64,000 nucleotides of DNA from Gemmatimonadaceae bacterium (GTDB taxonomy: Bacteria > Gemmatimonadota > Gemmatimonadetes > Gemmatimonadales > Gemmatimonadaceae): NCBI GenBank assembly GCA_037721215.1, contig JBBJNV010000009.1, forward strand, positions 1 to 64,000, written 5' to 3'. The position numbers were made by a program, and so were the translations under genes. Of this stretch, positions 1-13,448 are shown piece after piece. The stretch's first letter is position 1. Each line of letters starts with the position of its first letter. Below the pieces are notes generated by a model. It was not told the DNA's origin and ran no database searches. It saw only the letters and a list, made by a program, of their open reading frames with translations.

Positions 1-529
1 CAACCCCAGGTAGCTCCCGGTGCTGCACCCATGCGGCAACCATGCCCGCGGTGATGGCCGCTGCGAAAATGCTGGCAAGCTGCCCGCCGCTTATCGTCGC
101 CGACCCAAGCCCCAGCAGCCAAGGAATATTGATCATTATGGCAAAAACGGCGTTGAGCCCAAGGCTCTGCCGGATCGATGGCCGGAAATAACCGCCATAA
201 CAACCGCAATCGGTCACCTTGCCGGATCGGACTCCCCACCAGCTAAGTGCAGACAATCCGAACGGCAGCGCCAGCGAGCTCGGCCAGACAATCGAAGTGA
301 CAGCGGCCGCCAGAAGGGCAACTCCCAAGCCGGCCTCGACCGCTGCAGTCACGGTGACGGCCAGAGGCAGAAACCTTTCCGGTAGCAACCCGGGTGACGC
401 AAAGTGGCGGGAAAATCCGTACGGTGCTACCGCTTTGATGGATCCGGCGGCGAGGAAAGTTGCACCGCAATGCGGAGCTGTCGGACTCGCAGCAAAAAGG
501 CTTCCTTGCGGGAAGCCTTTTCCACTCAT
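1..529 (-). CDS. MauE/DoxX-like redox-associated membrane protein, C-terminus cut by window edge
   Basis: I read an open frame from ATG 529 down to base 1 with no stop, so the gene continues outside the window. It encodes a polytopic membrane protein. An early segment (GATFLAAGSIKAV) leads into a PYGFSRHF...GLLP stretch like the first helix-loop of MauE/DoxX-family proteins. Further hydrophobic segments follow, and in the middle sits the motif DCGCYGG, whose C-x-C pair is the expected redox site. MauE-type proteins are known partners of disulfide or cofactor maturation. The start is uncertain: ATG 529 places a perfect 11-bp hairpin inside the first codons, and no other ATG/GTG/TTG start occurs before the first membrane segment. 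The family call rests on motif and topology only. Confidence 0.55.
   Translation of the reverse strand, partial: MSGKGFPQGSLFAASPTAPHCGATFLAAGSIKAVAPYGFSRHFASPGLLPERFLPLAVTVTAAVEAGLGVALLAAAVTSIVWPSSLALPFGLSALSWWGVRSGKVTDCGCYGGYFRPSIRQSLGLNAVFAIMINIPWLLGLGSATISGGQLASIFAAAITAGMVAAWVQHRELPGV
495..521 (-). terminator. Perfect inverted-repeat terminator
   Basis: An 11-bp perfect stem (AAAAGGCTTCC / GGAAGCCTTTT) with a 5-base loop is followed on the minus strand by a run of five T. It lies about 80 bases downstream of the PqqD-like gene and is well placed to end that transcript. It also overlaps the apparent first codons of the MauE-like frame, so it may act as an attenuator. The reverse orientation ends in four T, so it could work both ways. 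Confidence 0.75.
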
Positions 530-602
530 CACCAGCGTAACGCTAATGTTCGACTTCTAAATTGGGTTTACCCGCACACCCTGCCTTGGCCTGGAGTGCC
601 GC

Positions 603-1062
603 TTAGGCAACGCAACCCATTTGGCAGTCGGCGCCCGTCTGACATGGGCTCCCCCCAGCCCCGGGAGATCCCTGCCCGTAGGCAGAAGTAGCGGAGAGCG
701 TAGCCACGGCAGGAATAAGGAGCGCGGCAGCACCGGTCAACGCAATCTTTCTCACAAGTTCACGTCGGGTAACATCCGGAAGGGCGGGCAGTTTCTGAGT
801 CGTTTCATCGAGCATATCAGCCTTGCGGAGTTCTTCGACGGACAGAGTGTACAGCCCTTCGTCCTTGGCTACGGCAATCGTGCGAGCAAGCTCGCCGGTG
901 ATCCCATCCGCTGTGCGGCCTCCCTCTTCCAGCAAGTCAAGGACGCACGCAGTGGTCGTATCGAGAAGGGTGCACCCGATCACCATTCGTATCGTAAATA
1001 AGCACCTGGCCACCCAGCTTGTGTTTCAGAAGTCCAGCGCGCACACTTGGAACAACGGACAT
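603..1062 (-). pseudogene. PqqD-domain protein with membrane segment and cysteine-rich tail, frameshifted
   Basis: Two frames join into one PqqD-like protein. The first, from ATG 1062 (GAGGGA ribosome site upstream), reads VPSVRAGLLKHKLGGQVLIYD and NGDRVH, then runs into a stop. The second continues with LLDTTTACVLDLLEEGGRT, the helical half of the PqqD fold. The switch lies at the CCC corresponding to 968-970. Removing one C restores a 152-residue protein. After the PqqD domain comes RRELVRKIA, then a hydrophobic stretch ending near SAYG, then a short tail with three cysteines (CQTGADCQMGC). PqqD proteins are peptide chaperones that bind leader peptides. Here the chaperone domain is fused to a signal-like segment and a cysteine tail. 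The lesion may be a true mutation or a single-base assembly error. Confidence 0.72.
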
Positions 1063-1492: not shown

Positions 1493-2278
1493 ATGCTTGA
1501 CTTCCATAACCATCTCATGCCTGCCGTCGACGATGGCGCCGGCGACATTTCCGAGTCCCGCACGGGCTTGCAAACATTGCAAAGTCAGGGAGTTCGGGAG
1601 ATCATCACGACTCCACACCTTCGCGGGTCTCTTACGCTTCGCCCGGGGGACCTTGCAGGGTTTCTTGGCATTCTCGACGAAGCGTGGGAATCACTCACCA
1701 CTCTCGCGGCTGAAGAGTTTCCCGATCTGCGCGTTGAGCGGGGCGTCGAGCTCATGCTCGACGTGCCGAACCCCAAACTCGATGACGCTCGACTTCGGCT
1801 TGCCGGAACTTCCTATGTACTTGTGGAGTTTCCTGCTTTTAACGTGCCCCCTCACAGCACGCTCGCACTACGGGAGCTGCGGCAGAGCGGCTGCACGCCG
1901 ATCATCGCTCATCCCGAGCGGTACTCCAATATGCCGGACAGCTACGACCTAGTGGCGGACTGGCGCGATGCGGGTGCGTTTATCCAGGTGAACTCGGGCT
2001 CGATCCTGGGCTATTATGGCCCGACGGCGAAGCGGCTCGCGTGGACACTGCTCGAAGCCGGTTATGTGGATTACCTCTCGAGCGACTACCACTCCCGGGG
2101 CAAGTGCGCGGTGGCGGAATGTGCCATGGTGATGAAGAGCAAGGGCGGCGTCGCACTCCACCGTTCACTGACCGATACCAATCCGCGGCGACTGCTCCGC
2201 GATGAAGGGCCGCTGCCAGTGCCCTCGTTCGAGTCCGGTGCTTCCCCATTCTGGAGCCGGGTGCTGCCGTGGCGCTGA
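1493..2278 (+). CDS. CpsB/YwqE-type PHP-domain tyrosine-protein phosphatase
   Basis: The 261-residue protein begins with MLDFHNHLMPAVDDG, the metal-binding opening of PHP phosphatases of the CpsB/CapC/YwqE group. Further metal motifs follow: TTPHLRG near residue 40, IIAHPERY near 137 and SSDYHSRG near 197. The basic, aromatic C-terminus is typical of the group. Family members dephosphorylate the tyrosine kinase (Wzc/CpsD) controlling polysaccharide chain length. No such kinase is present in this window, so the partner must be encoded elsewhere. The start is fixed because the family begins exactly at this motif. There is no clear Shine-Dalgarno sequence. The next gene starts 18 bases later, suggesting one operon. 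Confidence 0.9.
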   Translation: MLDFHNHLMPAVDDGAGDISESRTGLQTLQSQGVREIITTPHLRGSLTLRPGDLAGFLGILDEAWESLTTLAAEEFPDLRVERGVELMLDVPNPKLDDARLRLAGTSYVLVEFPAFNVPPHSTLALRELRQSGCTPIIAHPERYSNMPDSYDLVADWRDAGAFIQVNSGSILGYYGPTAKRLAWTLLEAGYVDYLSSDYHSRGKCAVAECAMVMKSKGGVALHRSLTDTNPRRLLRDEGPLPVPSFESGASPFWSRVLPWR

Positions 2279-2296
2279 TCGGCAGGTAGACGATCG

Positions 2297-3751
2297 ATGC
2301 TTTTCAATTCTTTCACGTTCCTGATCTTCTTCCCGATTGTGGCGACGATCTATTTTGTCATCCCGCATCGCCTCCGGTGGGCCTGGCTGCTTGCCGCCAG
2401 CTGCTATTTCTACATGGCGTTCATTCCCGTCTACATCCTTATTCTTTTCTTCACGATCGCGATCGATTATGTAGCCGGAATCCTGATCGAAAACGCTGAA
2501 GGAAGGCGAAGAAAATCACTGCTGGTAATGAGCATCGTCGCCAACGTCGGGGTGCTTGCCGTATTCAAGTACTTCAATTTCCTCAGTGGCAATGCGCGCG
2601 CTGTAGCGGACGTGTTCAATCTGCCGTACGACTTCGCGCTGCTCGACTTCATCCTCCCAATCGGCCTGTCGTTTCACACTTTTCAGGCGATGAGCTACAC
2701 GGTGGAGGTGTATCGTGGACGGCAGCGTGCGGAGCGCCACCTGGGGATCTATTCTCTGTATGTAATGTTTTTTCCACAGCTCGTTGCGGGCCCTATCGAG
2801 CGGCCGCAGAACCTGCTCCATCAATTCTACGAAAGACACGCTTTCGATTACGATCGAGTCACCAACGGGCTCCGCCGGATGGCCTACGGCCTTTTTCTGA
2901 AAGTCGTAATCGCCGATCGCCTCGCCGGCTACGTCAATCCCGTGTACAACGACGCTGGAAGCTACAAGGGTCTGACGTTCGTGGTGGCAACGATATTTTT
3001 TGCATTCCAAATATATTGCGATTTCGCCGGCTATTCCTACATGGCGATCGGATCCGCAGAGGTGATGGGATTCCGGCTGATGCGAAACTTCAACCGGCCG
3101 TATCTTGCGCGCTCGGTCAGCGAGTTCTGGGGACGGTGGCACATCTCGCTGTCAACCTGGTTCCGCGATTACGTCTACATCCCCTTTGGCGGCAATCGCG
3201 TCTCGCGCCGGCGATGGTATCTCAACCTGCTCATCACGTTCTTTTTGAGCGGTCTGTGGCATGGCGCCAACTGGACGTTCGTGATCTGGGGCTCGCTGAA
3301 TGGTGTCTATCTGGTCGCGTCACTGATTGCGATGCAGTTTCGCGAAAGCATCGCACGCGCCGCACGTGTCGCCGCGCATCCTCGCGTAAGAGCAGTGTGG
3401 GGTGTCCTGTTCACCTTCGCATTGACCTGCCTTGCCTGGGTCTTCTTTAGAGCCCCGAGTCTCGACGATGCGCTCTATATCATTCGGGCCACGATGACTT
3501 GGCCAATACCGCATGACGTGCTGCCCGATGCTTTGCGCGCCGAAGGTCTGACAAAGCCGGAGGTTCTTTACAGCGCGTTGCTCGTAGTCGGCCTGATGAC
3601 GTTCGAATACATCTCTGAGCGCGTTAATTTCCCCCGGCTGTTCGCGGCGCAGCCAGGCTGGCTCAGATGGTCGGTTTATTATTGCGGGTGCATGGCGATC
3701 TGGCTTCTGGGAATCAGTTCCGAAACGGCGTTCATCTACTTCCAGTTCTGA
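2297..3751 (+). CDS. MBOAT-family membrane O-acyltransferase (AlgI/DltB type)
   Basis: The 484-residue polytopic membrane protein opens with LFNSFTFLIFFPIV, a hallmark of AlgI-like MBOAT proteins. It carries PQLVAGPIERPQ near residue 160 and SGLWHGANWTFVIWG near residue 320, whose histidine is the family's catalytic residue. These enzymes pass acyl groups, usually acetyl, across the membrane onto polysaccharides. The next gene encodes an SGNH-type partner and starts inside this stop codon (TGATG), the arrangement seen for AlgI-AlgJ/AlgX pairs. Together they probably O-acetylate the exported polymer. The acyl group itself cannot be read from sequence. Confidence 0.92.
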   Translation: MLFNSFTFLIFFPIVATIYFVIPHRLRWAWLLAASCYFYMAFIPVYILILFFTIAIDYVAGILIENAEGRRRKSLLVMSIVANVGVLAVFKYFNFLSGNARAVADVFNLPYDFALLDFILPIGLSFHTFQAMSYTVEVYRGRQRAERHLGIYSLYVMFFPQLVAGPIERPQNLLHQFYERHAFDYDRVTNGLRRMAYGLFLKVVIADRLAGYVNPVYNDAGSYKGLTFVVATIFFAFQIYCDFAGYSYMAIGSAEVMGFRLMRNFNRPYLARSVSEFWGRWHISLSTWFRDYVYIPFGGNRVSRRRWYLNLLITFFLSGLWHGANWTFVIWGSLNGVYLVASLIAMQFRESIARAARVAAHPRVRAVWGVLFTFALTCLAWVFFRAPSLDDALYIIRATMTWPIPHDVLPDALRAEGLTKPEVLYSALLVVGLMTFEYISERVNFPRLFAAQPGWLRWSVYYCGCMAIWLLGISSETAFIYFQF

Positions 3752-4767
3752 TGCGCCGGTTCCTGTCGCGCGTGATTGCGCTTGCTGCGGCCATTGTCAT
3801 TTCCGGCATCCTCATCAGCCGGTACGACGCCCACGCGGCGGACGACAACTATCTCGCCGCGGTGCTGGAGAAAGACCGCCTCATCCGATCCACCCCTTCG
3901 CCGAAACTGATCCTGGTGGGCGGATCCAACCTCGCGTTCGGCATCGACAGCCGAATGCTGCAGGACTCGCTCGGGCTTCGTGTCGTCAACATGGGTCTAT
4001 ACGCGAAACTCGGCCTTCGATACATGCTGGCTCAGGCGCGGCCGTATATCGGGAAGGGCGACCTGGTCATTGTCGTACCGGAGTATGAACAGTTCTTTGG
4101 TGAGTTCGGCAATGGAGATTTCACGTTGAACACCGCGTTGCTTTACGCGCCGCTCGACCGGATTGGCGACTTCTCGCAATCATATTCTGTAATTGACGTC
4201 GTCCTCCGGCCGCGGGTTGAGAACACGCGACGGTCGTTTCTGAAGGGCCTCGCTCAGCTCACTGGACAGGGACAGGCGTACCAGCCGCAAGACACGAATT
4301 CATACTACAGCCGACAGGCATTCGACTCGCTCGGCGACATGGTTGCCCACCTCGGACGCTCAGGGCTGCATCCGGATTCGATCTACGTGAAAGAAATACC
4401 GCCCATGCGCGAGTTCAACGCCGAGATGGTTGACGAGCTGAACGTGGTGGCGGGCGTTGCCAGGAAGCGTGGAGCGCGCGCCTACTTCCTTTTTCCTGCG
4501 TACATCGACAGGTCGTACGAAGTCAGCCGGCCCCGCATCGACTCACTCCGCGCGCGTCTGGAAAGCGACATGCACCTTCCAATTGTCGGCAAGGCATCTG
4601 ATTTCGTTTTGCCAGCGCCCTTGTTCTTCGATACGCGGTACCATCTGAACCAGGAAGGACGGCGGCTTCGCACGTTGCGCATGATCCAGCTGCTGCGCCC
4701 CTACGCTCTCCGGGAAGTCTCCGCCGTGCGTACTTCGTCTTCATGCGCCGTTGCCGCGTGCGGATGA
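3751..4767 (+). CDS. SGNH-like (AlgJ/AlgX/DltD type) acyl-transfer partner
   Basis: I chose ATG 3751, which overlaps the MBOAT stop; an upstream ATG in frame is a shadow of the MBOAT gene. The 338-residue product has an N-terminal membrane anchor or signal (residues about 4-22). It then shows LILVGGSNLAFGIDS near residue 50, the GxSxxxxG block of SGNH enzymes, and near the C-terminus FFDTRYHLNQEG, supplying the Asp and His. Such proteins act in the periplasm with an MBOAT partner to acetylate polysaccharide. The last 22 codons overlap the 3' end of the convergent dehydratase gene, and that tail (rich in Ser, Cys and Ala) looks unconserved. Confidence 0.8.
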   Translation: MRRFLSRVIALAAAIVISGILISRYDAHAADDNYLAAVLEKDRLIRSTPSPKLILVGGSNLAFGIDSRMLQDSLGLRVVNMGLYAKLGLRYMLAQARPYIGKGDLVIVVPEYEQFFGEFGNGDFTLNTALLYAPLDRIGDFSQSYSVIDVVLRPRVENTRRSFLKGLAQLTGQGQAYQPQDTNSYYSRQAFDSLGDMVAHLGRSGLHPDSIYVKEIPPMREFNAEMVDELNVVAGVARKRGARAYFLFPAYIDRSYEVSRPRIDSLRARLESDMHLPIVGKASDFVLPAPLFFDTRYHLNQEGRRLRTLRMIQLLRPYALREVSAVRTSSSCAVAACG

Positions 4768-6635
4768 AAATCGGGCACCAGAGTCTGGAGAAGCTTCCTT
4801 ACTTCGTCGTCGGGCCGCCCCGCTTCGGTCGTACGCATCAGCGCGTCGATGCGACGGATTGTTCCCTCTGCGAGCAGCCCGTTGCGAGCGCGAAGCACCT
4901 TCGGGTGATCTGTAGGCAAGACATTCTCGGCGGTGAAGAACATTTCTTCGTAAAGCTTCTCACCAGGACGCACGCCGGTGAACTTGATCTCGATATCGGC
5001 ACCCACTTCGAGTCCTGACAATCTGATGAGATCGGTGGCGATGTCGACCACCCGGATCTGTTCGCCCATGTCGAGTACGAACACCTCGCCGCCCCGCCCG
5101 AGCGCTCCGGCCTGAAGAACGAGCTGCACCGCTTCCGGGATCGTCATGAAATAACGGCGCATCTCCGAGTGCGTAACGGTCACTGGCCCGCCGGCACGGA
5201 TTTGTCGCAGAAACGTCGGCACAACGGAACCGCGACTGCCGAGTACGTTGCCGAATCGCACTGAAACGAAGTTGCGGTGGTGCTTTGTGGCGGCGTGTTG
5301 TACAAGCTGTTCGGCGATTCGCTTGGTAGCGCCCATCACGCTCGTCGGCCGTACCGCCTTGTCTGTTGAGATGAGAACGAAATGCTGCACGTTGGCCTCG
5401 ACGGCCGCGTCGACGACATTTCGGGTGCCAGCGACGTTGTTGGTCACGGCCTCGAGGACATTGTCCTCCATCAGCGGGACGTGTTTGTGAGCTGCTGCGT
5501 GGAATACCGCGTGTGGCTGATACTGCTGGAAGATGTAGCTGATCCGCTGACGGTCGCGTACGTCGGCTATCACCGGAATGACCTGAACGTCCGGGAAGCT
5601 GAGTGTCAGCTCCTGAAAGATGTCGAAAATCGAGTTCTCGCCATGCCCGAGCAAAATCAGCCGTGTCGGTGCAAGGCGAGCCAGCTGGCGGCAGAGCTCG
5701 CTGCCGATCGAGCCGCCGGCACCGGTGATGAGAACCGTCTCGCTGGTGGCAAGCTCCGCGACTGCGGCGAGGTCTGTTTCGACGGCATCTCTACGCAGGA
5801 GATCCTGGATCTCCACTTCTCGCAGTCCGGTGGCATTCCCCTGCCGGGAGATGATCTCCGGGAGGCTTGGCACGGTTCGCGTCGGAATACCGCACGACAG
5901 CGCGGCACGCACTACCTGCCGGATTACCGTTCCAGGAGCCGACGGCATGGCGATGATGATCTCCGCCACGCCAAAGCGCTCGACGATCTCGGGAATGTGC
6001 GCGAGCGGTCCGAAAACTGGGAGACCGGCCAGTGTATGGCCGTGCTTTGTAACATCACTGTCGACGAATCCAATCGGCTCGAGCCCAAGCTGCCGCGTCG
6101 CGAACAATTCCTTGACGACCAGCTTGCCTGCGTCGCCCGCGCCGGCGATCAAAACCCGCTTCCCGATGTCGGTCTTACGGCGACGCAGAAACCCGTGTCG
6201 CTGTATGCGCACCATCAGCCGAGGCAGCGCCACCAGCGCACCGGTGAGGAACGCATCGATGAAGACGACGGAAAATGGAACCCGCGTCGCCGTGAGATTG
6301 AAGAGCGGAAGAGCTATGAGTCCGATCAATCCGCAGGCGACTCCGGCGCCCGCTGCCGCTCCGAGGATCGGCTTCAACTCCCCTACGCTCGCGTGCCTCC
6401 AGAGCCTGCGGTACATGCCGGCGGCGAAAAAGATCGCCAGGCGCACCGGCACCGACAGGAGCAGATAGAACGTGACGAGCCGTAGGTTGTCGCTGATCCA
6501 CTGCGGCTCTTCAAATCGCACCAGGAATGCGAGCAGCGTTGCGGCGATTACCGAGAACGCATCGGCGATGAAGAGGTGCCTGTTACGAAATGGCTTAAGC
6601 GTCAAAACGTTCGGTGGCCTGAGGTGGTTCAGCAA
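4701..6635 (-). CDS. Membrane-anchored nucleotide-sugar 4,6-dehydratase, CapD/WbpM/FlaA1 family
   Basis: The 644-residue protein has four hydrophobic segments in residues 20-145, then two Rossmann modules. The first is a CoA/NAD-binding-like domain (VLIAGAGDAGK at 161). The second is the catalytic SDR domain (VLITGAGGSIGSEL at 301, STDK at 423, SVMGATK at 432). Met434 replaces the usual SDR tyrosine, the hallmark of this family. Members convert UDP-GlcNAc to the 4-keto-6-deoxy sugar for QuiNAc/FucNAc or bacillosamine. The reductase at 51873 and the WecA-like enzyme at 52886 would use its product. The start is a TTG at 6635; TTG 6605 is an alternative. The 3' end overlaps the convergent SGNH gene by 67 bases. 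Confidence 0.9.
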   Translation of the reverse strand: MLNHLRPPNVLTLKPFRNRHLFIADAFSVIAATLLAFLVRFEEPQWISDNLRLVTFYLLLSVPVRLAIFFAAGMYRRLWRHASVGELKPILGAAAGAGVACGLIGLIALPLFNLTATRVPFSVVFIDAFLTGALVALPRLMVRIQRHGFLRRRKTDIGKRVLIAGAGDAGKLVVKELFATRQLGLEPIGFVDSDVTKHGHTLAGLPVFGPLAHIPEIVERFGVAEIIIAMPSAPGTVIRQVVRAALSCGIPTRTVPSLPEIISRQGNATGLREVEIQDLLRRDAVETDLAAVAELATSETVLITGAGGSIGSELCRQLARLAPTRLILLGHGENSIFDIFQELTLSFPDVQVIPVIADVRDRQRISYIFQQYQPHAVFHAAAHKHVPLMEDNVLEAVTNNVAGTRNVVDAAVEANVQHFVLISTDKAVRPTSVMGATKRIAEQLVQHAATKHHRNFVSVRFGNVLGSRGSVVPTFLRQIRAGGPVTVTHSEMRRYFMTIPEAVQLVLQAGALGRGGEVFVLDMGEQIRVVDIATDLIRLSGLEVGADIEIKFTGVRPGEKLYEEMFFTAENVLPTDHPKVLRARNGLLAEGTIRRIDALMRTTEAGRPDDEVRKLLQTLVPDFHPHAATAHEDEVRTAETSRRA

Positions 6636-6785
6636 AAGTGGTCAAAACACGTTCGCCGGGTCGTGACGACTGAGCACCCGGTCCATGCGGCATCGACGTC
6701 TCAATCTACGCGCAAAAGACCCCTGCACAATACGGATGTCAAACGATGGCGCGGACTTACGTTATTCGGGCTGCTGATAATCCAA

Positions 6786-6813
6786 TTGACTGACGGGAGC
6801 CCTGATGTGACAT
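6786..6813 (+). promoter_or_regulatory. Candidate promoter for the gmd-led block
   Basis: TTGACT and TGACAT are separated by 16 bases, about 100 bases upstream of gmd, in the 277-base divergent region 6636-6912. The -35 match is good and the -10 match is poor. On the opposite strand a perfect TTGACA at 6742-6737 points toward the CapD-like gene but has no good -10. The region contains no supported gene. Confidence 0.25.
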
Positions 6814-6912
6814 TTCCCATGCCTCAATCTCCCATTCAATATCTGTTCCGGCGAGCCGCAGCGGATGCCTATACCCGCGCGGAGCCTTGCCGTATCTTCA
6901 GGAATTTTCTGC

Positions 6913-8004
6913 ATGAAAACTGCGCTGATTACAGGCGTCACTGGTCAGGACGGGGCGTATCTGGCCCGGCTGCTGCTTGCCAAGGGGTATCTGGTCCACG
7001 GGCTCAAACGGCGCGCGTCCTCGTTCAATACGCAGCGTGTAGACGGCATATACTCGGAGCCGCAGGACGTTCATTCCCGGTTTGTCATGCACTATGGCGA
7101 TATGACGGACGCTACAAACCTCATCCGGATCATACAGGAGTGTCAGCCGGACGAGATCTACAATCTCGCCGCGCAGAGCCACGTTCAGGTGTCGTTCGAG
7201 ACGCCGGAGTACACCGGTAATGCCGACGGGCTGGGCACACTCCGCATCCTCGAGGCAATGCGAATTCTCGGCATGCTTGGCAGCGTCCGGTTCTATCAGG
7301 CATCGACCTCCGAGCTCTATGGCAAGGTGCAGGCTGTCCCTCAGAACGAGACAACCCCGTTTTATCCCCGATCGCCTTATGCGGTCGCCAAGCTCTATGC
7401 CCACTGGATCACGGTGAACTACCGCGAGGCGTACGGCGTGCACGCATCGTCGGGAATTCTTTTCAACCACGAGTCTCCTATCCGCGGCGAGACGTTCGTC
7501 ACGCGCAAGATCACGATGGCGGCCGCGCGCATCCGCGAGGGTCAGCAGGACAAGCTGTTTCTTGGAAATCTCGAAGCGCGGCGGGACTGGGGTTTCGCCG
7601 GCGATTATGTCGAAGGGATGTGGCGGATCGTGCAACACGAGACTCCCAGCGATTACGTTCTCGCGACTGGCGAAGCCCACACCGTCAGGGAATTCTGCGA
7701 GTTCGCGTTTGCACGTGCGGGCATCAATCTCGAGTTCCGCGGCGAAGGAGTGGATGAAGCAGGATTCGATGCGGCCACGGGAAAGGAGCTGGTGTCGATC
7801 GACCCGCGATATTTCCGTCCCACAGAGGTTGACCTTCTTCTCGGAGACTCTGGCAAAGCTCGCCGGGAGCTGGGCTGGGTCCCGCGCACCGGGTTTACCG
7901 AGCTCGTCGAGATGATGGTCGACGCGGATCTCGCTTCTGCCCAGTCAGGTGAGCCGTTCTCCGTCGAGTCGTCGTATGCGGCGCTTCACTCACTGTTGAA
8001 GTGA
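6913..8004 (+). CDS. gmd: GDP-mannose 4,6-dehydratase
   Basis: The enzyme converts GDP-mannose to GDP-4-keto-6-deoxymannose. I set the start at ATG 6913, directly before [12 protein letters not shown], the family's NADP-binding opening (GxxGQDG at residues 8-14). Catalytic residues are visible as [10 protein letters not shown] (Thr132, Ser133, Glu134) and YAVAK (Tyr156, Lys160). The block [16 protein letters not shown] is diagnostic of Gmd. Length 363 is normal for the family. The stop overlaps the next ATG (TGATG). The product can feed the fucose synthase next door or, in principle, the perosamine-synthase-like aminotransferase at 40293. Confidence 0.96.
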
Positions 8005-8969
8005 TGGCGAACGCCACCCGAAACTGTTTCGTTGCCGGACATCGCGGACTTGTGGGCTCCTCCATCGTGCGTGCGCTCGTAGCTTCGGGCTATGACGCCC
8101 CGACCGTGCGCGGCAGGGAAGAGCTCGATCTCCTCGACCAGGTTGCGGTCCGCGAGTTTTTCAATGCCGAGCGTCCGGATGTCGTTTTTTTCGCCGCCGC
8201 GAAAGTAGGAGGAATCAACGCCAACAACACACAGCGTTGGGATTTCCTTTTTGAGAACCTGGTCATCGAGACCAACGTGCTCGGCGCCGCGCTGGCGACT
8301 GGTGTGGACCGGTTGGTATTTTTTGGTTCGTCCTGCATTTACCCACGGCTGGCGCCCCAGCCGATCAGTGAAGATCATCTGCTCACCGGCCCGCTGGAAG
8401 AAACGAATGAGCCATATGCGATCGCGAAGATCGCGGGGCTCAAGCTGGTCGAAGCGGCCAATGCCCAGCAGGGCAGGCGGTGGGTGTCGGTTATGCCAAC
8501 CAACCTCTACGGCACCAATGACAATTTTGACCTTGACGGTTCGCATGTCCTGCCCGCTTTGATCCGGAAGTTCCACGAGGCGAAGGAAGCTGGCGATGCG
8601 GGCGAGGATGCGCGCGTGAGCTTATGGGGGCATGGCACCGCCCGGAGGGAGTTCCTGCATGTCGACGACGCAGCCGGTGCGGCCGTGGCGCTCATGGAAT
8701 CCGGAGCGACAGGGTTGTTCAATGTCGGATCAGGAGATGACCTCACAATCCGGGAGCTTGCCGAGCTCGTAGGCCGCGTCGTTGGGTATGATGGCCCGGT
8801 CGATTGGGATACGACAAAGCCTGACGGAACCCCGAGAAAGCTCCTCGACTCGTCAAAAATTCGGGCTACGGGATGGGCGCCGCGGATTTCACTCGAGGAC
8901 GGCCTGCGCGCCACATATGACTGGTACCGGGCCAGCCATCAAACAGCAACGCCGGGACTGGCACGTTGA
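8004..8969 (+). CDS. fcl: GDP-L-fucose synthase
   Basis: This bifunctional 3,5-epimerase/4-reductase completes GDP-L-fucose from the Gmd product. The 321-residue SDR shows VAGHRGLVGSSI at residues 10-21 (NADP binding), FGSSCIYPRLAPQPISED and YAIAK (Tyr138, Lys142), all diagnostic for the GDP-fucose synthase/WcaG family. ATG 8004 overlaps the gmd stop; a GTG one codon upstream is possible. Gene order gmd-fcl is the classic arrangement. The last bases overlap the TTG start of the Wzz-like gene. Confidence 0.95.
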   Translation: MANATRNCFVAGHRGLVGSSIVRALVASGYDAPTVRGREELDLLDQVAVREFFNAERPDVVFFAAAKVGGINANNTQRWDFLFENLVIETNVLGAALATGVDRLVFFGSSCIYPRLAPQPISEDHLLTGPLEETNEPYAIAKIAGLKLVEAANAQQGRRWVSVMPTNLYGTNDNFDLDGSHVLPALIRKFHEAKEAGDAGEDARVSLWGHGTARREFLHVDDAAGAAVALMESGATGLFNVGSGDDLTIRELAELVGRVVGYDGPVDWDTTKPDGTPRKLLDSSKIRATGWAPRISLEDGLRATYDWYRASHQTATPGLAR

Positions 8970-10084
8970 CCCGACCTCGCGTGACTGAATCGCTGGCGGT
9001 GGCAGGCCCTGTTGATGTGACGGGAATGCCATGGCCGCCGCCAAGCGAGATCTCGGTGATGAGCTTGTTCAACACGATCCTGCGCTACCGTTTCATGATC
9101 GCCTTGCTCACGCTCGCCTGTGGATTCTATGCGGGCTGGAAGAGCTACCGATCGCCGCGCTCATTCACCGCCGAAGCGCAGTTCATGCCCAAGGGAGGCG
9201 GCGGCCAAAGCCAGTTCTCCGGAATCGCTGCGCAGCTCGGAATCAACGTGACCGGCGGTGGCGGAGCGCAGAGCGCAGAGTTCTATATCGACCTCCTCGA
9301 GTCCCGGCCGCTGCTGGCCCTTGTCGCCGAGAAGACCTACACGATCCGCACCGACAGCGGCATCAGCACGGGAAATCTCGTCCGGATTTTCAGGATCAAC
9401 GACCCTCGCCCTGCAGTGAGGCGCGCTCGCGTCATCAACGGATTGAAGGCAGCGGTAAGCGCGACAGCGTCGGTCAAGACGGGGGTCATCACCATGCGGG
9501 TTACTTCCGGCAGCCCTCAACTCGCGCTGCAGATCGCGCAGAATCTGCTCGACCAGGTAAACGTCTACAATCTCGCGCGCCGCCAGGAGCAGGCTGCGCT
9601 GGAGCGCGGGTTCGTGGAACGGAGAGTGTTGGAAGCGCAGGTGCAATTGCGGCAGGCCGAATCGGAGCTTGGCTATTTTCTCAATACAAACCGCCAGTAC
9701 CACACGTCGCCGCAACTGACGCTCGAATACGGCCGCCTTCAGCGCACGATGGACATGCGGCAGTCGATTTACACGTCGCTGCTTCAGGCTTTTGAAACGG
9801 TAAGGATCGAGGAGATGCGCGATCTCCCTGTCATCACGATCGTCGAGCCGCCTGAACAGCCACTCGAGCCGAACAGGCGCGGCGGTGCGCAGAAGGCACT
9901 GCTCGGCATCTTCATCGGACTCGCTCTTGGCATTGCGCTGGCATTTCTGCGCGCGAAATTTGCCGCCAACCGCGCTGCCCAGACCGACGACTTCATGGAG
10001 TTCACAGCGCTCCGAAATGAAGCCCTTGGGGACATTACTCATCCCTGGCGCCCCGTAGCGCGCCTGTTTCGACCCAAGCTCTGA
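8966..10084 (+). CDS. Wzz/polysaccharide co-polymerase-like protein (copy 1)
   Basis: The 372-residue protein has a cytoplasmic N-terminal stretch, a membrane helix near residues 42-57, a long periplasmic domain with a coiled-coil-prone region, and a second helix near 311-330. That is the topology of Wzz/KpsE-type chain-length regulators. Just before the second helix it carries PVITIVEPPEQP, the proline motif typical of the family. Directly downstream lie an ABC exporter permease and ATPase, so this copy may work as the periplasmic adaptor of the ABC pathway (KpsE role). The longest start is TTG 8966, which overlaps the fcl stop; ATG 9026 is an alternative. A paralogue sits at 53911. Confidence 0.8.
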   Translation: MTRPRVTESLAVAGPVDVTGMPWPPPSEISVMSLFNTILRYRFMIALLTLACGFYAGWKSYRSPRSFTAEAQFMPKGGGGQSQFSGIAAQLGINVTGGGGAQSAEFYIDLLESRPLLALVAEKTYTIRTDSGISTGNLVRIFRINDPRPAVRRARVINGLKAAVSATASVKTGVITMRVTSGSPQLALQIAQNLLDQVNVYNLARRQEQAALERGFVERRVLEAQVQLRQAESELGYFLNTNRQYHTSPQLTLEYGRLQRTMDMRQSIYTSLLQAFETVRIEEMRDLPVITIVEPPEQPLEPNRRGGAQKALLGIFIGLALGIALAFLRAKFAANRAAQTDDFMEFTALRNEALGDITHPWRPVARLFRPKL

Positions 10085-10085
10085 G

Positions 10086-10958
10086 ATGACCGCCCCCGCA
10101 ACGGTTGCAACGCACGACGCCCACCTCGCGTCGGGACGCCGCCCAACGGTGGTCATCGAGCCCGCCAGCGGCTGGTCAGCGCTGAACCTTCGCGAACTGT
10201 GGACCTACCGGGACCTGCTGTTCATTCTCGCTGGCCGCGATATAAAGCTGCGATACAAGCAGACTGCTCTTGGCATTACCTGGGTCATCCTGCAGCCACT
10301 TGTCGCCGCCCTCATCTTCACGATCATGTTCGGCCGGTTTGCAAAACTCCCCAGCGACGGGCATCCCTACATCGTGTTCGTGTTCTCGGGTATCGTAGCG
10401 TGGAATTATTTCGCGGCCGTGCTGCAGCGTGCTGGTAACAGTCTCATTACAGACTCGAAGCTGATAACGAAGGTCTATTTCCCGAGACTCGCGATCCCGC
10501 TCGGCAGTACTTTTTCAGCGATGATCGATCTTGCGGTATCGCTCGGTGTTCTCGGCGTGATCATGCTCGTGTATCAGGTAACTCCGACGTGGCGGCTCGT
10601 TGTACTGCCGCTCTTCATCCTTCTGGCGGCAGTGACGGCGACCGGGGTGAGTCTCTGGCTGTCAGCGCTGAACGTCCGCTACCGCGACTTCGCACATGCG
10701 ATGCCGTTCATCATCCAGGTCTGGATGTTTTCCAGTCCGGTTGCCTATGCAACCACGATTGTCCCGGAGAAATGGCGGCTGTTGTACGGCCTGAATCCGG
10801 CGGTTGCGTTCGTCGAGGGCTTTCGATGGTCGGTACTCGGTTCGAGCTCGATAACGTTGCCGCTGGTGCTGGTGGCGTCTGCGCTCTCACTGCTGATCTT
10901 CACTGCCGGCGCGTTCTTCTTCCGCCGCGTTGAGCGCGGATTTGCGGACGCCGTATGA
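10086..10958 (+). CDS. wzm: ABC-2 type polysaccharide exporter permease
   Basis: The 290-residue integral membrane protein has six predicted helices after a cytoplasmic N-terminus. It carries RDLLFILAGRDIKLRYKQT followed by ALGITWVILQPL, the signature entry of Wzm/KpsM/TagG permeases. It should pair with the ATPase encoded next, whose ATG overlaps this stop by four bases (ATGA). Together they export lipid-linked polysaccharide across the inner membrane. The lack of any Wzx in the window makes this exporter the only visible inner-membrane translocator. Confidence 0.93.
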   Translation: MTAPATVATHDAHLASGRRPTVVIEPASGWSALNLRELWTYRDLLFILAGRDIKLRYKQTALGITWVILQPLVAALIFTIMFGRFAKLPSDGHPYIVFVFSGIVAWNYFAAVLQRAGNSLITDSKLITKVYFPRLAIPLGSTFSAMIDLAVSLGVLGVIMLVYQVTPTWRLVVLPLFILLAAVTATGVSLWLSALNVRYRDFAHAMPFIIQVWMFSSPVAYATTIVPEKWRLLYGLNPAVAFVEGFRWSVLGSSSITLPLVLVASALSLLIFTAGAFFFRRVERGFADAV

Positions 10959-12295
10959 GCGACATTGCGATAAGGGTCGAGGGGCTCGCCAAATCGTACA
11001 GAATCGCACGAGCGCTCGGACGCCAGCCGTATCGGACCCTCCAGGAAGAAGTCATCGCTCTGCCGAAGAACCTCTGGAAGCGGGCGCTTGGCAGAGCAGA
11101 GACCATGGAGACGTTCTGGGCGCTCGACGACGTGTCGTTCGACGTCAATCAGGGTGAAGTAGTCGGAATCATCGGCCGCAATGGAGCAGGGAAGAGCACG
11201 TTGCTCAAGGTCCTGTCCCGTATCACGCAGCCAACGCGCGGACGCGCCGAGATCTACGGCCGGATCGGTGCGCTCCTCGAAGTCGGGACCGGATTTCATC
11301 CCGAGCTGACAGGGCGCGAGAATATCTTCCTGAGTGGCGCAATACTCGGGATGCGGAAGACGGAGATTGCCCGGCAGTTCGACGCGATCGTGGGGTTTGC
11401 AGAGGTGGATCAGTTCATCGACACTCCCATAAAGCGTTACAGCAGCGGCATGTACACCAGGCTTGCTTTCGCGGTGGCCGCGCATCTGGAGCCGGAGATA
11501 CTTCTGGTGGACGAAGTGCTTGCGGTAGGGGACGCGTCATTCCAGAAAAAATGTCTTGGGAAGATGGAAGACGTCGCTGGCGAGGGCCGGACGGTGTTTT
11601 TTGTAAGCCACAACACGCAGGCCGTCCGACAGCTTTGCACGCGGGGAATTCTTATGGAACATGGACGGGTCGTGGCCGATGGTCCAACCGACGCGACGAT
11701 GGCTGTCTACAACCAGCGGCTCCGTGACATGCGCGTGGATGCCGAAACGGGAGTCAACAATCCCGAGAACCGTCGCGGGTCCGGCGCGGTCAGATTCACC
11801 GGCGTATCAGTAGAGGACCTGGACGGAAACGAGCGTTACTCGTTCGAGATGGGCGACAGCATTCGGTTCAGGCTTTCCATGGCGGTCAACACGCCGATGC
11901 GCGGCCTCGCTGTCGTGGTCGCCCTGAGGTCCGGATTGTCCCGCGAACTGGTGACGTCCGCGCGTCATGTTGTGACAACGGACGCGGTACCCGCAGGCGT
12001 TGTCTCGACCGTCGTGGTCGATCTCCCGAACATCTACATCCGGCCCGGGGAGTACCCGCTCTATCTCCAGGCTACGGAGGCCATCCAGTCGGCGACGAAC
12101 TATGACGTTCTTGATGACCTCACGCCGCCGCTGGTCGTTACCGGCGGCGCGAGGATGCCTTATGAAAATTTCGACCCAGCGCAGCCGTATGGCGTATTCT
12201 CCCTGCCGAGCGAGATGAGAGTCGAGCATGCTCCGTCGCCCAAGATTGCTGACGAGGTGCCGGCGAAACGTATGCGGCCCCATATAATGAGATGA
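10955..12295 (+). CDS. wzt: ABC exporter ATPase with C-terminal glycan-binding domain
   Basis: The 446-residue protein has a complete nucleotide-binding domain: Walker A GRNGAGKST near 74, signature YSSGM near 162, Walker B ILLVDE near 182, and the switch histidine in FFVSHN. Residues from about 270 onward form a separate beta-rich domain (VRFTGVSVED onward) that matches the Wzt C-terminal domain, which in O-antigen exporters recognises the finished chain's non-reducing end. This implies recognition of a capped polymer. The ATGA overlap with wzm shows translational coupling. The stop overlaps the ATG of a broken glycosyltransferase gene. Confidence 0.94.
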   Translation: MSDIAIRVEGLAKSYRIARALGRQPYRTLQEEVIALPKNLWKRALGRAETMETFWALDDVSFDVNQGEVVGIIGRNGAGKSTLLKVLSRITQPTRGRAEIYGRIGALLEVGTGFHPELTGRENIFLSGAILGMRKTEIARQFDAIVGFAEVDQFIDTPIKRYSSGMYTRLAFAVAAHLEPEILLVDEVLAVGDASFQKKCLGKMEDVAGEGRTVFFVSHNTQAVRQLCTRGILMEHGRVVADGPTDATMAVYNQRLRDMRVDAETGVNNPENRRGSGAVRFTGVSVEDLDGNERYSFEMGDSIRFRLSMAVNTPMRGLAVVVALRSGLSRELVTSARHVVTTDAVPAGVVSTVVVDLPNIYIRPGEYPLYLQATEAIQSATNYDVLDDLTPPLVVTGGARMPYENFDPAQPYGVFSLPSEMRVEHAPSPKIADEVPAKRMRPHIMR

Positions 12296-12517
12296 AGACA
12301 CCTTCCGGCTCGCATGTGCCTACCGTATCCCGTCGTCGCGGTTCGCAATCAGGAACGTTTCATCGGCCGTTGCGTGCGTTCCATTCTGAATCAGACGTAT
12401 GCGCGGTCCGACTTCGAAGTGATCGTGGTGAACGATGCCAGTGCAGACCGTACGCGGTACGCGCTGGAGCTGTTCGAGGGGGGATCATTAACTCCCACGT
12501 TCGCGCAAAGGCCGTGA
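12292..12517 (+). pseudogene. Remnant of a GT2 glycosyltransferase N-terminus, frameshifted and truncated
   Basis: ATG 12292 overlaps the wzt stop (ATGA), exactly as intact genes of this block do, and reads MKTPSGSHVPTVS before losing frame. From 12314 another frame reads VVAVRNQERFIGRC then SILNQTY and FEVIVVNDASADRT, the nucleotide-binding start of a GT-A/GT2 enzyme. The frames join if one C is removed from the CCC near 12334. The protein then ends after about 70 residues, while real GT2 enzymes have 250 or more. The catalytic DxD region and acceptor half are missing. This is a decayed gene start, not a functional short protein. Confidence 0.8.
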
Positions 12518-12569
12518 CGGAGGGATGAGCGATTCCGCCGGATGAATTCTGGTTGCGGCGCACACGACG

Positions 12570-13448
12570 GTGAACCGTTTTGCGCTCGGTACGGTGCAGC
12601 TGGGCATGGCATACGGGCGCAATCGCGAGTTGCCGATGATGACCGAACAAGCGGCATTCAGAATCCTCGACGCCGCGTGGGACATCGGGTTGCGTGTGTT
12701 CGACACCGCTGAAGCGTACGGTGCGTCGGCGCCGCGTCTTCGTCGATGGATAGATCTCCGCGGTTACGCCGACCGTGCAACTGTCGTGACAAAATGCACG
12801 CTCGGCGGCGCGTCACACGGCGCGGTTGGAACGTCCGAAAGCGCCGCTGCGGCACTCGCGCGCTTCAGTGGAGTCCATGCGCTGGTTCTGCTCACACACG
12901 GTGCCGCTGGCGCCGATGACTGGACGGCTGTGAGCACAATCGCGGCCCGCCATGTCACGGGCGCCGGGCAGAGTGTTTACACGCCCGAGGAAGTCATCTC
13001 GGCGTGTCGCATGCCTGGGACCGCTCGCGTACAGGCACCGGCCAACGTTCTGGACGAACGTGCCCTCGCCGCTCGCACCGATTCGCCGACCGCGCTCGAC
13101 GTACGCTCTGTCTATCTCCAGGGTGTTCTCCTCGAATCACCGGAGTCAGCCGAGCGGCGCGTGCCGGGTTCGGGTCGGATTGTAAGCGCGCTTCGATCGA
13201 CAGCCGATTCGCAGAATGTCGACCTTGCGCCGCTGCTGGTCGCGAGCATGCTGCAGAAGCTCCGGCGCGGCGACAGGGTGGTGCTGGGCGTCGATGACGC
13301 ATCCCAGCTCGAGGTGATTCCCGCCGCGATCGAGATAGATCATGACACGGTCAGAGATTTTGATACTGCCACCAGCCCCCTCAGGAAAGAAGCAATAGCG
13401 GAGTCGATACGCGACCCACGCGCCTGGACAGTCGGCAACGGCCGATGA
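12570..13448 (+). CDS. Aldo/keto reductase-family protein
   Basis: The 292-residue protein begins FALGTVQLGMAYGRN and contains VFDTAEAYGASAPRLR, the N-terminal barrel strand and active-site Asp/Tyr region of aldo/keto reductases. It is on the short side and the C-terminal NADP-binding part is divergent. Small AKR-like proteins of this type often sit beside SpsF-type cytidylyltransferases and NeuB enzymes in nonulosonic acid loci, as here. Its exact substrate is unknown. The start is GTG 12570, with no clear ribosome site. The stop overlaps the next ATG by four bases. Confidence 0.75.
   Translation: MNRFALGTVQLGMAYGRNRELPMMTEQAAFRILDAAWDIGLRVFDTAEAYGASAPRLRRWIDLRGYADRATVVTKCTLGGASHGAVGTSESAAAALARFSGVHALVLLTHGAAGADDWTAVSTIAARHVTGAGQSVYTPEEVISACRMPGTARVQAPANVLDERALAARTDSPTALDVRSVYLQGVLLESPESAERRVPGSGRIVSALRSTADSQNVDLAPLLVASMLQKLRRGDRVVLGVDDASQLEVIPAAIEIDHDTVRDFDTATSPLRKEAIAESIRDPRAWTVGNGR

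What the first reader, a model, noticed from the sequence alone, without database searches (positions are those of the whole stretch)
603..1062. PqqD chaperone domain fused to a signal-like segment and a three-cysteine tail
A peptide-chaperone fold (normally a leader-peptide binder) is joined to a twin-arginine-flavoured hydrophobic segment and a 20-residue Gly/Cys tail. If the tail is cut off after export, the protein would carry its own cargo. A MauE/DoxX-like membrane protein with a C-x-C site lies next to it and could oxidise or reduce those cysteines. This looks like a possible self-contained peptide or redox system.
Basis: partly seen in the sequence, partly recalled or inferred. Interest (0 to 1): 0.55.

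Follow-up and report, generated by a model that had tools for sequence, protein, structure and literature searches.

The report
Broken copy of exported knotted-peptide precursor
The window holds a damaged copy of an apparently undescribed bacterial protein design in which a peptide-handling domain carries its own export signal and a cysteine-rich mini-protein cargo, and relatives in several phyla suggest what a known but unexplained kinase system works on.

Summary
Intact relatives occur in the genus (54-62% identity), across Gemmatimonadota, in Acidobacteria and in a few other lineages. In 44 aligned proteins the two arginines are invariant and the tail is hypervariable, mostly cysteine-rich with even cysteine counts (35 of 37), often C-C-CC-C-C as in knottins. 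Usual neighbours are an HprK-like kinase and an NTP_transf_5 enzyme. A MauE-thioredoxin fusion occurs in 5 of 395 phylum genomes, all with the Cys-tail protein. The key comparison: in HPr-rel-A systems with kinases over NCBIfam's cut-off, 26 of 30 loci of another phylum and 3 of 3 in Acidobacteria carry a separate twin-arginine-signal protein gene beside the PqqD gene. So the fused protein looks like PqqD chaperone and exported substrate in one chain. Best reading: self-guided precursor, Tat export, cleavage, release of a disulfide-rich mini-protein. Export, cleavage, modification and disulfides are inferred. The window copy is probably decaying; its genome's kinase is a remnant. Novelty: new variant of RRE-guided systems.

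The parts
603..1062 (-). frameshifted gene of the PqqD/RRE - Tat-like signal - Cys tail family (152 residues when the two frames are joined; stop at 603-605)
   Evidence: intact relatives at 54-62% identity
810..1062 (-). PqqD/RRE-like domain, residues 1-84; frame changes near 970
   Evidence: beta3-alpha3 model; TbiB1/TfuB1 Z 10.4, PqqD 5sxy Z 7.6
672..770 (-). twin-arginine signal-like segment, residues 98-130 (RR at 762-767), possible cleavage after A-Y-G
   Evidence: RR invariant in 44 of 44; TatC present in the genome
606..671 (-). short Gly-rich tail with three cysteines (residues 140, 146, 150)
   Evidence: the four nearest relatives have 6-10 cysteines here
2..532 (-). MauE domain with C-x-C, cut off by the contig end; relatives continue into a thioredoxin-like CxxC domain
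   Evidence: PF07291 E 1.1e-12; matches MauE-Trx models at positions 20-170 and 21-170; alignment A4

Best explanation
The window gene is a decayed member of a family of self-guided precursors derived from HPr-rel-A-like systems. (1) The N-terminal PqqD/RRE domain is the recognition half of the precursor itself; it recruits the tailoring enzymes encoded beside it, an HprK-like kinase and an NTP_transf_5 nucleotidyltransferase. (2) The internal RR-x-hydrophobic segment is a Tat signal that threads the C-terminal tail across the inner membrane. (3) A signal peptidase cuts near A-x-A/G, leaving the RRE domain inside and releasing the tail. (4) In cysteine-tail members the tail becomes a small disulfide-bonded, often knottin-like, mini-protein; in part of the Gemmatimonadota a MauE-thioredoxin fusion handles the disulfides. 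In the unfused form of the system the same roles are split between a PqqD protein and a separate signal-bearing substrate. Shown by sequence: domain order, invariant RR, Cys enrichment and parity, neighbours, the separate substrate genes, co-occurrence of MauE-Trx. Inferred: recruitment, the chemistry of kinase and nucleotidyltransferase, Tat use, cleavage, disulfides. The window copy has a frame change and a short odd-Cys tail, and its genome keeps only a remnant of the cluster kinase, so here the system is probably dying.
For: Order: 44 of 44, RR at two invariant columns although mean column identity is 31%. Unfused form: 30 loci with a kinase over the TIGR04352 cut-off in the phylum of G403 (the best 30 of 60 positive genomes among 398): 22 have a same-strand RR-signal protein gene just upstream of the kinase's PqqD-sized neighbour by motif, four more by eye (L218, L220, L221, L235), one on the other strand (L234), three none (L236, L237, L243). 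Acidobacteria: kinases over the cut-off in L188, L189, L191 (376, 280, 330 bits), each with a small RR-signal gene directly upstream of PqqD. Gemmatimonadota L134, L137, L142: PqqD, methyltransferase (PF13649/PRMT_C), then RR-signal peptide genes overlapping the methyltransferase by 4 bases or abutting it. Tail: mean pairwise identity 0.17 against 0.35 (PqqD part) and 0.40 (signal); Cys 14.7% against 1.5%; C-C-CC-C-C in 23 of 44 against a shuffled mean of 1.96, maximum 7 in 1000; even Cys number in 35 of 37. Profile of 12 such tails meets knottin-type peptides in PDB (best E 6e-4); one tail modelled at pLDDT 88. Kinase or NTase in 33 of 41 loci, median gaps 82 and 59 bases. MauE-Trx. Decay.
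Against: 7 of 44 tails have no cysteine and one has two, so the disulfide part holds for a majority only. In the unfused form the substrate gene lies before PqqD, whereas in the fused protein PqqD comes first, so the fusion is not a plain join of neighbours. Three of eight loci with PqqD over its cut-off and a kinase nearby (L190, L192, L193) showed no such gene. Seven of 12 Cys-tail genomes of the phylum draw lack MauE-Trx, and so does G040, which has a separate six-cysteine RR peptide. The knottin match rests mostly on cysteine spacing, Z is at most 4.2, and only a chosen subset was modelled. The Tat-signal matches in PDB are at chance-level E (0.1-0.6) among unrelated chains such as Psb31. 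Eight of 41 loci show neither enzyme. The frame change could still be a sequencing error.
Confidence: 0.63

Rival explanations
1. Uncleaved membrane protein: the RR segment is a permanent anchor, the RRE domain faces the cytoplasm and presents another peptide to kinase and nucleotidyltransferase, and the periplasmic cysteine tail is a sensor or docking piece.
For: An A-x-A was not found by a strict rule in 10 of 47 rows. RRE domains of lasso systems bind a separate leader (5v1u, 6jx3 are leader complexes by their titles).
Against: Tails vary in length and sequence while domain and signal are conserved; in the unfused systems the signal-bearing protein is a gene of its own next to PqqD, which makes it a client rather than an appendage.
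Confidence: 0.2
2. The window copy is intact in nature: the frame change is an assembly or sequencing error, and the three-cysteine protein works as it stands, perhaps as a redox peptide with MauE.
For: Both halves are well conserved and the frame change is the only interruption seen; the genome keeps an intact MauE-Trx gene at C16 and a long open nucleotidyltransferase frame at C6.
Against: An odd, short cysteine tail is unusual (35 of 37 are even); the cluster kinase in the same genome is a remnant in two frames that lacks its P-loop and what follows.
Confidence: 0.2
3. ToxR-like transmembrane regulator: the N-terminal winged helix binds DNA, followed by a membrane segment and a periplasmic cysteine domain.
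For: The fold list also holds ToxR and response-regulator winged helices (Z 7.0 and below); the domain order is similar.
Against: Lasso B1 proteins rank higher (Z 10.4); the sequence profile meets PqqD and lasso B1 first; partners are an HprK-like kinase and NTP_transf_5; invariant RR is not expected of a plain anchor.
Confidence: 0.04

Closest known systems
HPr-rel-A system (TIGR04353 PqqD_rel_X, TIGR04352 HprK_rel_A)
   Same: All 13 members of A2 match TIGR04353 at E up to 1 and 19 of 44 members of A5 at E 0.01 or better; four cluster kinases match TIGR04352 (E 4e-24 to 2e-12); same gene set with NTP_transf_5; the true members have a separate RR-signal substrate gene.
   Different: Window protein 22.6 bits against 35, cluster kinases 46.7-85.3 bits against 200. 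Of 13 TIGR04353-type ORFs recognised in 30 loci, 12 have no signal or tail, 11 of them 93-128 aa. Fusion of domain, signal and tail is the new part.
Lasso peptide tailoring pair of paeninodin and pseudomycoidin (HPr kinase homologue, nucleotidyltransferase, B1/RRE)
   Same: RRE, HPr-kinase homologue and nucleotidyltransferase in one cluster; closest folds are lasso B1 proteins (PMC8498205, passages).
   Different: RRE fused to signal and tail; no lasso B2/C pair stood out; the C-terminal Ser of those peptides is not a feature here.
SynChlorMet cassette (ScmD PqqD-like, ScmC kinase-like)
   Same: 28 of 44 members match TIGR04248 at E 0.01 or better; two of four kinases weakly match ScmC.
   Different: Its radical SAM enzymes (recalled) were not seen: no such motif ORF in 41 loci.
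DUF2282 precursors with DUF2063 RRE partners
   Same: RRE-linked precursors with an export signal (PMC12710340, passage).
   Different: Sec signals and an RRE on a separate protein there; Tat-like signal and RRE in cis here.
Inhibitor cystine knot peptides (knottins)
   Same: C-C-CC-C-C in 23 of 44 tails; PDB sequence and fold matches of a 12-tail subset.
   Different: Bacterial and attached to an RRE domain; the match rests on cysteine spacing, common ancestry is not claimed; the window tail does not fit.
TIGR04117 Cys-Xaa-Xaa-Xaa repeat radical SAM target
   Same: One A5 member and the separate L133 peptide match weakly (E 9e-6, 0.0016).
   Different: The L133 peptide is far below its cut-off (18.5 against 50 bits).

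Membership tests
RRE / PqqD (PF05402) | beta3-alpha3 winged-helix fold | tested here: met
   E11-16 E19-24 E29-33 H35-46 H51-62 H68-80; TbiB1 Z 10.4 rmsd 2.5 over 86, PqqD 5sxy Z 7.6
RRE / PqqD (PF05402) | score over Pfam's cut-off | tested here: not met
   Window protein 13.1 bits against 23.4; 12 of 13 A2 members match at E up to 1, best 2.4e-9
HPr-rel-A system (TIGR04352/TIGR04353) | PqqD member over 35 bits and kinase over 200 bits | tested here: not met
   22.6 bits; kinases of four fused loci 46.7-85.3 bits
HPr-rel-A-like neighbourhood | kinase and nucleotidyltransferase genes beside the PqqD gene | tested here: inconclusive
   Family: 27 and 27 of 41 loci, either in 33; in the 21 loci L061-L081 not used to build the models 10, 14 and 16. 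Window: contig end; NTase and a kinase remnant lie on contig C6
Tat substrate | S/T/N-RR-x-hydrophobic motif, hydrophobic stretch, A-x-A-like site | tested here: met
   RR 44 of 44; S, T or N before RR in 39 of 44; TatC in genome. Window: TRRELVRK, A-Y-G
Tat substrate | transport depends on TatC; cleavage | not testable with these tools
   No signal predictor and no experiment available
Inhibitor cystine knot | six or more cysteines in C-C-CC-C-C order | tested here: not met
   Window tail has three cysteines; family: 23 of 44 tails fit
RiPP | core residues modified by the cluster enzymes under RRE guidance | not testable with these tools
   No mass data; gene neighbourhood only
Lasso peptide cluster | B2 peptidase and C cyclase beside the RRE | not tested
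   No profile scan for them was run on the loci; none stood out among the recurrent neighbours listed

The most novel reading that the evidence does not exclude
The substrate of HPr-rel-A-like systems is a Tat-exported, often cysteine-bearing protein encoded beside its PqqD chaperone; in Gemmatimonadota, Acidobacteria and others chaperone and substrate have fused into RRE-in-cis precursors that shed hypervariable disulfide-knotted mini-proteins, tailored by a lasso-type kinase/nucleotidyltransferase pair and, in some genomes, oxidised by a dedicated MauE-thioredoxin protein: a new class of bacterial peptide product.
Probability: 0.48. Interest if true: 0.82.

Novelty: new variant of a known kind. 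Interest (0 to 1): 0.67.

Why it matters
Knottin-like peptides are mainly known from animals, plants and sponges (recalled); a cross-phylum bacterial family with its own recognition domain, export signal and tailoring enzymes would be a new source. More widely it proposes the missing client of HPr-rel-A, a kinase/PqqD set that NCBIfam names; no product was met in the searches, and ten of the client proteins match no NCBIfam model over its cut-off. A 2025 survey counts 21% of PF05402 proteins as over-long without a further Pfam domain (PMC12710340, section 6 read); members of this family that reach PF05402 would fall there. The MauE-thioredoxin link is directly testable.

Tried and rejected
Conserved three-cysteine motif: rejected, spacing and number vary. 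Radical SAM partner: none by motif. Programmed frameshift: rejected, the 45 relatives read through without one; the only other broken copy noticed is L054. Three of the 20 positive phylum genomes (G076, G227, G223) were dropped as false after (G076 is a Tat-signal cupin-like protein, named by eye), leaving 17 of 395. In one search the weak hits G014 (a transporter by eye), G040 (discrete PqqD) and G026 (tail without Cys) were not counted as fused Cys-tail. One search also gave four genomes (G191, G061, G062, G066) with partial MauE or Trx matches (E 1e-6 to 5e-9), not counted as MauE-Trx. The 395-genome draws have the same size and share the handles shown; the full lists were not shown. The L133 peptide is weaker than I first thought: it lies antisense to the far end of the kinase ORF, where that frame no longer looks coding. 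A hand-made Tat-peptide rule was too strict: it missed the Gemmatimonadota peptides and L188, L189, found only L191, and nothing in the 64-kb window. A looser rule listed 19 candidates in 11 loci; I accepted five by eye (L134, L137, L188, L189, L191), the rest are Arg-rich overlapping frames or lack the pattern. In one search the 22 genes were picked by motif and the model then built from them, so their matching it is by construction; the position beside PqqD is the independent part. The PqqD-sized ORF in those 30 loci was seen by position for the loci printed, not scored by a profile in each. The other 30 positive genomes were not examined. Rows left out of A5: L048 and the third L069 copy; L054 (broken), a truncated second L078 ORF and the five duplicates L056-L060; A5 has 44 rows. 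A6 holds 12 tails chosen because they fit the six-Cys pattern. The scan used PqqD-part patterns but confirmed hits against a tailed query, so untailed relatives were disfavoured. PDB matches are called knottins from their names (recalled); Dickkopf-4 rows are among them. Probabilities ignore shared ancestry. A wide fold-list absence is not used as evidence. Literature: searches gave no paper describing this architecture among the listings seen; preprints and subscription papers are mostly not held. Between the first and this filing I added; they raised the confidence slightly (0.60 to 0.63) and the novel case (0.42 to 0.48), because the separate-gene form proved to be the rule in true HPr-rel-A loci.

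Full report
What is in the window. On the minus strand an ATG at 1062 starts a frame reading MSVVPSVRAGLLKHKLGGQVLIYDTNGDRVH and then runs into a stop; the continuation is in the next frame, the listed ORF 603-1013. Profile matches of the two halves abut at 970/971. The window is bases 1-64000 of contig C9 of a 3.5-Mb, 45-contig genome, so the MauE gene at 2-532 is cut by the contig end. The genome belongs to Gemmatimonadota by inference: the same-order genome G246 carries the family protein on a contig of 11825 bases, the length of the named contig in which L056 (100% identical to that protein) was found, a Gemmatimonadetes bacterium.

The domain. Sequence evidence for PqqD is weak for this copy but the family is clear: 12 of 13 diverse members match PF05402 and all 13 TIGR04353 at E up to 1. 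A profile of the 13 meets PqqD structures 3g2b and 5sxy first (E 0.0036, 0.0063), then TbiB1 and TfuB1. The AlphaFold model of the window protein has the beta3-alpha3 order and is closest to lasso B1 proteins solved with leader peptides (Z 10.4).

The relatives. Four intact copies lie in three genomes of the same genus (62, 55, 54 and 56% identity). Of 395 genomes of the phylum 20 gave a match, of which I keep 17. A scan of the named genome collection with patterns from the PqqD part, confirmed against a tailed query, returned 26 loci: Gemmatimonadota, Acidobacteria (Blastocatellia, Pyrinomonadaceae, Vicinamibacteria and others), Myxococcales, a deltaproteobacterium and Devosia; five repeat loci already held. 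Each has at least one copy with RR, hydrophobic stretch and a Cys tail. The 44-row alignment A5 has both arginines invariant, with S, T or N before them in 39 of 44. Further fused members in Acidobacteria came (L195, L209, L212, L215, two in L216).

The signal. Two NCBIfam Tat models match some members (TIGR01409 6 and TIGR02811 2 of 13 at E up to 1; 4 and 3 of 44 at 0.01); the family signal model finds the N-terminal signal of an unrelated cupin-like protein; TatC is present in the genome. Matches of the profile's middle to NosZ and MelC chains are at chance-level E (0.1-0.6); that those two go by Tat is recalled. No signal predictor was available.

The tail. It is the least conserved part: mean pairwise identity 0.17 against 0.35 (PqqD part) and 0.40 (signal). 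Cysteine makes 14.7% of tail residues against 1.5% of the front; 36 of 44 tails have three or more cysteines, 34 six or more, 7 none. Among the 37 with any cysteine the number is even in 35; the two odd ones are the window copy and one short L069 tail. The order C-C-CC-C-C fits 23 of 44, against a mean of 1.96 and a maximum of 7 in 1000 shuffles. A profile of 12 such tails finds 59 PDB sequences at E up to 10, by their names nearly all venom, plant or sponge knottins (best E 6e-4); one tail is modelled at mean pLDDT 87.8 and resembles knottin structures (TM about 0.7 for the best rows, E 0.45 and worse; Z up to 4.2). The scores are modest and the sequence match rests on cysteine spacing. The window tail, three cysteines, fits none of this and is modelled at pLDDT below 60.

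The partners. In 41 non-redundant loci an HprK-like kinase is present in 27, NTP_transf_5 in 27, both in 21, either in 33, with median gaps of 82 and 59 bases; in the 21 loci L061-L081, not used to build the models, the numbers are 10, 14 and, for either, 16. Examples match TIGR04352 below its cut-off and PF14907 above it. In lasso clusters such a kinase phosphorylates a C-terminal Ser and such a nucleotidyltransferase adds hexoses (PMC8498205, passages). Several loci lie in or near polysaccharide gene clusters by my reading of the neighbours, as does the window (CpsB/CapC and MBOAT).

MauE. In these Gemmatimonadota the MauE gene is fused to a thioredoxin-like domain with C-x-x-C and has an invariant C-x-C in the MauE part (6 sequences). 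Among 61 relatives it occurs in five genomes, the five with a fused Cys-tail protein. Among 395 phylum genomes full-length matches occur in five, all with such a protein, out of 12 Cys-tail genomes counting the window's; the other seven lack it, and none of the three genomes with cysteine-free tails has it. Against the link: G040, with a separate six-cysteine RR peptide, lacks it. Four of the first five are one genus, so the events are fewer than the counts. In the window's genome an intact copy sits about 1.2 kb from ftsZ on C16.

The unfused form. This is the result that changes the picture. A search for the curated kinase model TIGR04352 in the phylum of the Devosia genome found it over its cut-off in 60 of 398 genomes; the best 30 came as loci. 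In 22 of them a same-strand gene of 82-228 codons just upstream encodes an arginine-pair signal such as ARRRKLLKGLAAGVPAIITLQSGAALAA near its start, followed by a variable body that in most printed cases ends near SCWxSF. Four more loci have a like protein by eye (L218, L220, L221, L235), L234 has one on the other strand, and L236, L237, L243 have none and no clear PqqD there. In Acidobacteria the three loci with a kinase over the cut-off (L188, L189, L191) each have a small RR-signal gene directly before PqqD: L188 5701-5937, L189 5542-5913, L191 6276-6485. Of 11 loci with PqqD over its cut-off in two phyla, 8 have a kinase nearby and five a signal gene; L190, L192 and L193 have a kinase and none was found. 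In Gemmatimonadota L134, L137 and L142 the order is PqqD, a methyltransferase, then one or two RR-signal peptides of 76-98 aa that overlap the methyltransferase gene by 4 bases or abut it. Ten such proteins match no NCBIfam model over its cut-off. So a signal-bearing protein beside PqqD is the rule in true HPr-rel-A loci, and the window family joins the two roles in one chain, though in the opposite order.

State of the window copy. Besides the frame change and the odd short tail, the genome's cluster kinase is a remnant: two pieces (query residues 9-52 and 94-121 of 276) in different frames, P-loop and what follows gone, next to an open nucleotidyltransferase gene and an integrase-core (PF00665) ORF on contig C6. 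I read this as a system in decay, with sequencing error as the live alternative for the frame change itself.

Verdict. New are the architecture, RRE domain, Tat-like signal and mostly disulfide-rich cargo in one chain, and the proposal that its unfused counterpart is the client of HPr-rel-A systems; what the products do is unknown.

Noticed in passing
L088 (G000:C6) 8322-12489: A second PqqD set in the same genome: asparagine synthase (PF00733), discrete PqqD (10243-10635) and an HprK-like gene (11410-12489), lasso-like in make-up.
   Followed up: partly
L088 (G000:C6) 2116-4592: Kinase remnant in two frames between an integrase-core (PF00665) transposase-like ORF and an open NTP_transf_5-like gene.
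   Followed up: yes
L087 8948-9913 (G000:C16): Intact MauE-thioredoxin gene near ftsZ, with no PqqD-tail gene in the 19 kb fetched.
   Followed up: partly
L218-L247 upstream genes: RR-signal proteins of 160-240 aa beside true HPr-rel-A PqqD genes, many ending near SCWxSF; no NCBIfam model over cut-off in the ten scanned.
   Followed up: partly
L134, L137, L142: A methyltransferase with PRMT-like C-terminal part sits between PqqD and the RR-signal peptide genes.
   Followed up: partly
L042, L043 7154-7594, L044 9830-10366: Family members of two genomes of one genus with Gln/Asn-rich tails and no cysteine; L043 and L044 hold two copies each.
   Followed up: no
L142 9689-9919: Separate RR-signal peptide with a Met-Gly repeat tail.
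   Followed up: no
L195 5944-6609: Fused Acidobacteria member whose tail is a long Gly/Asp/Thr/Pro repeat, no cysteine in the part printed.
   Followed up: no
L069 6006-11332: Three family genes within 6 kb in a Chloracidobacterium contig without kinase or nucleotidyltransferase in view.
   Followed up: no
window 1493-15500: Polysaccharide cluster: CpsB/CapC and MBOAT by Pfam; sugar epimerases, chain-length protein and ABC exporter by eye.
   Followed up: no
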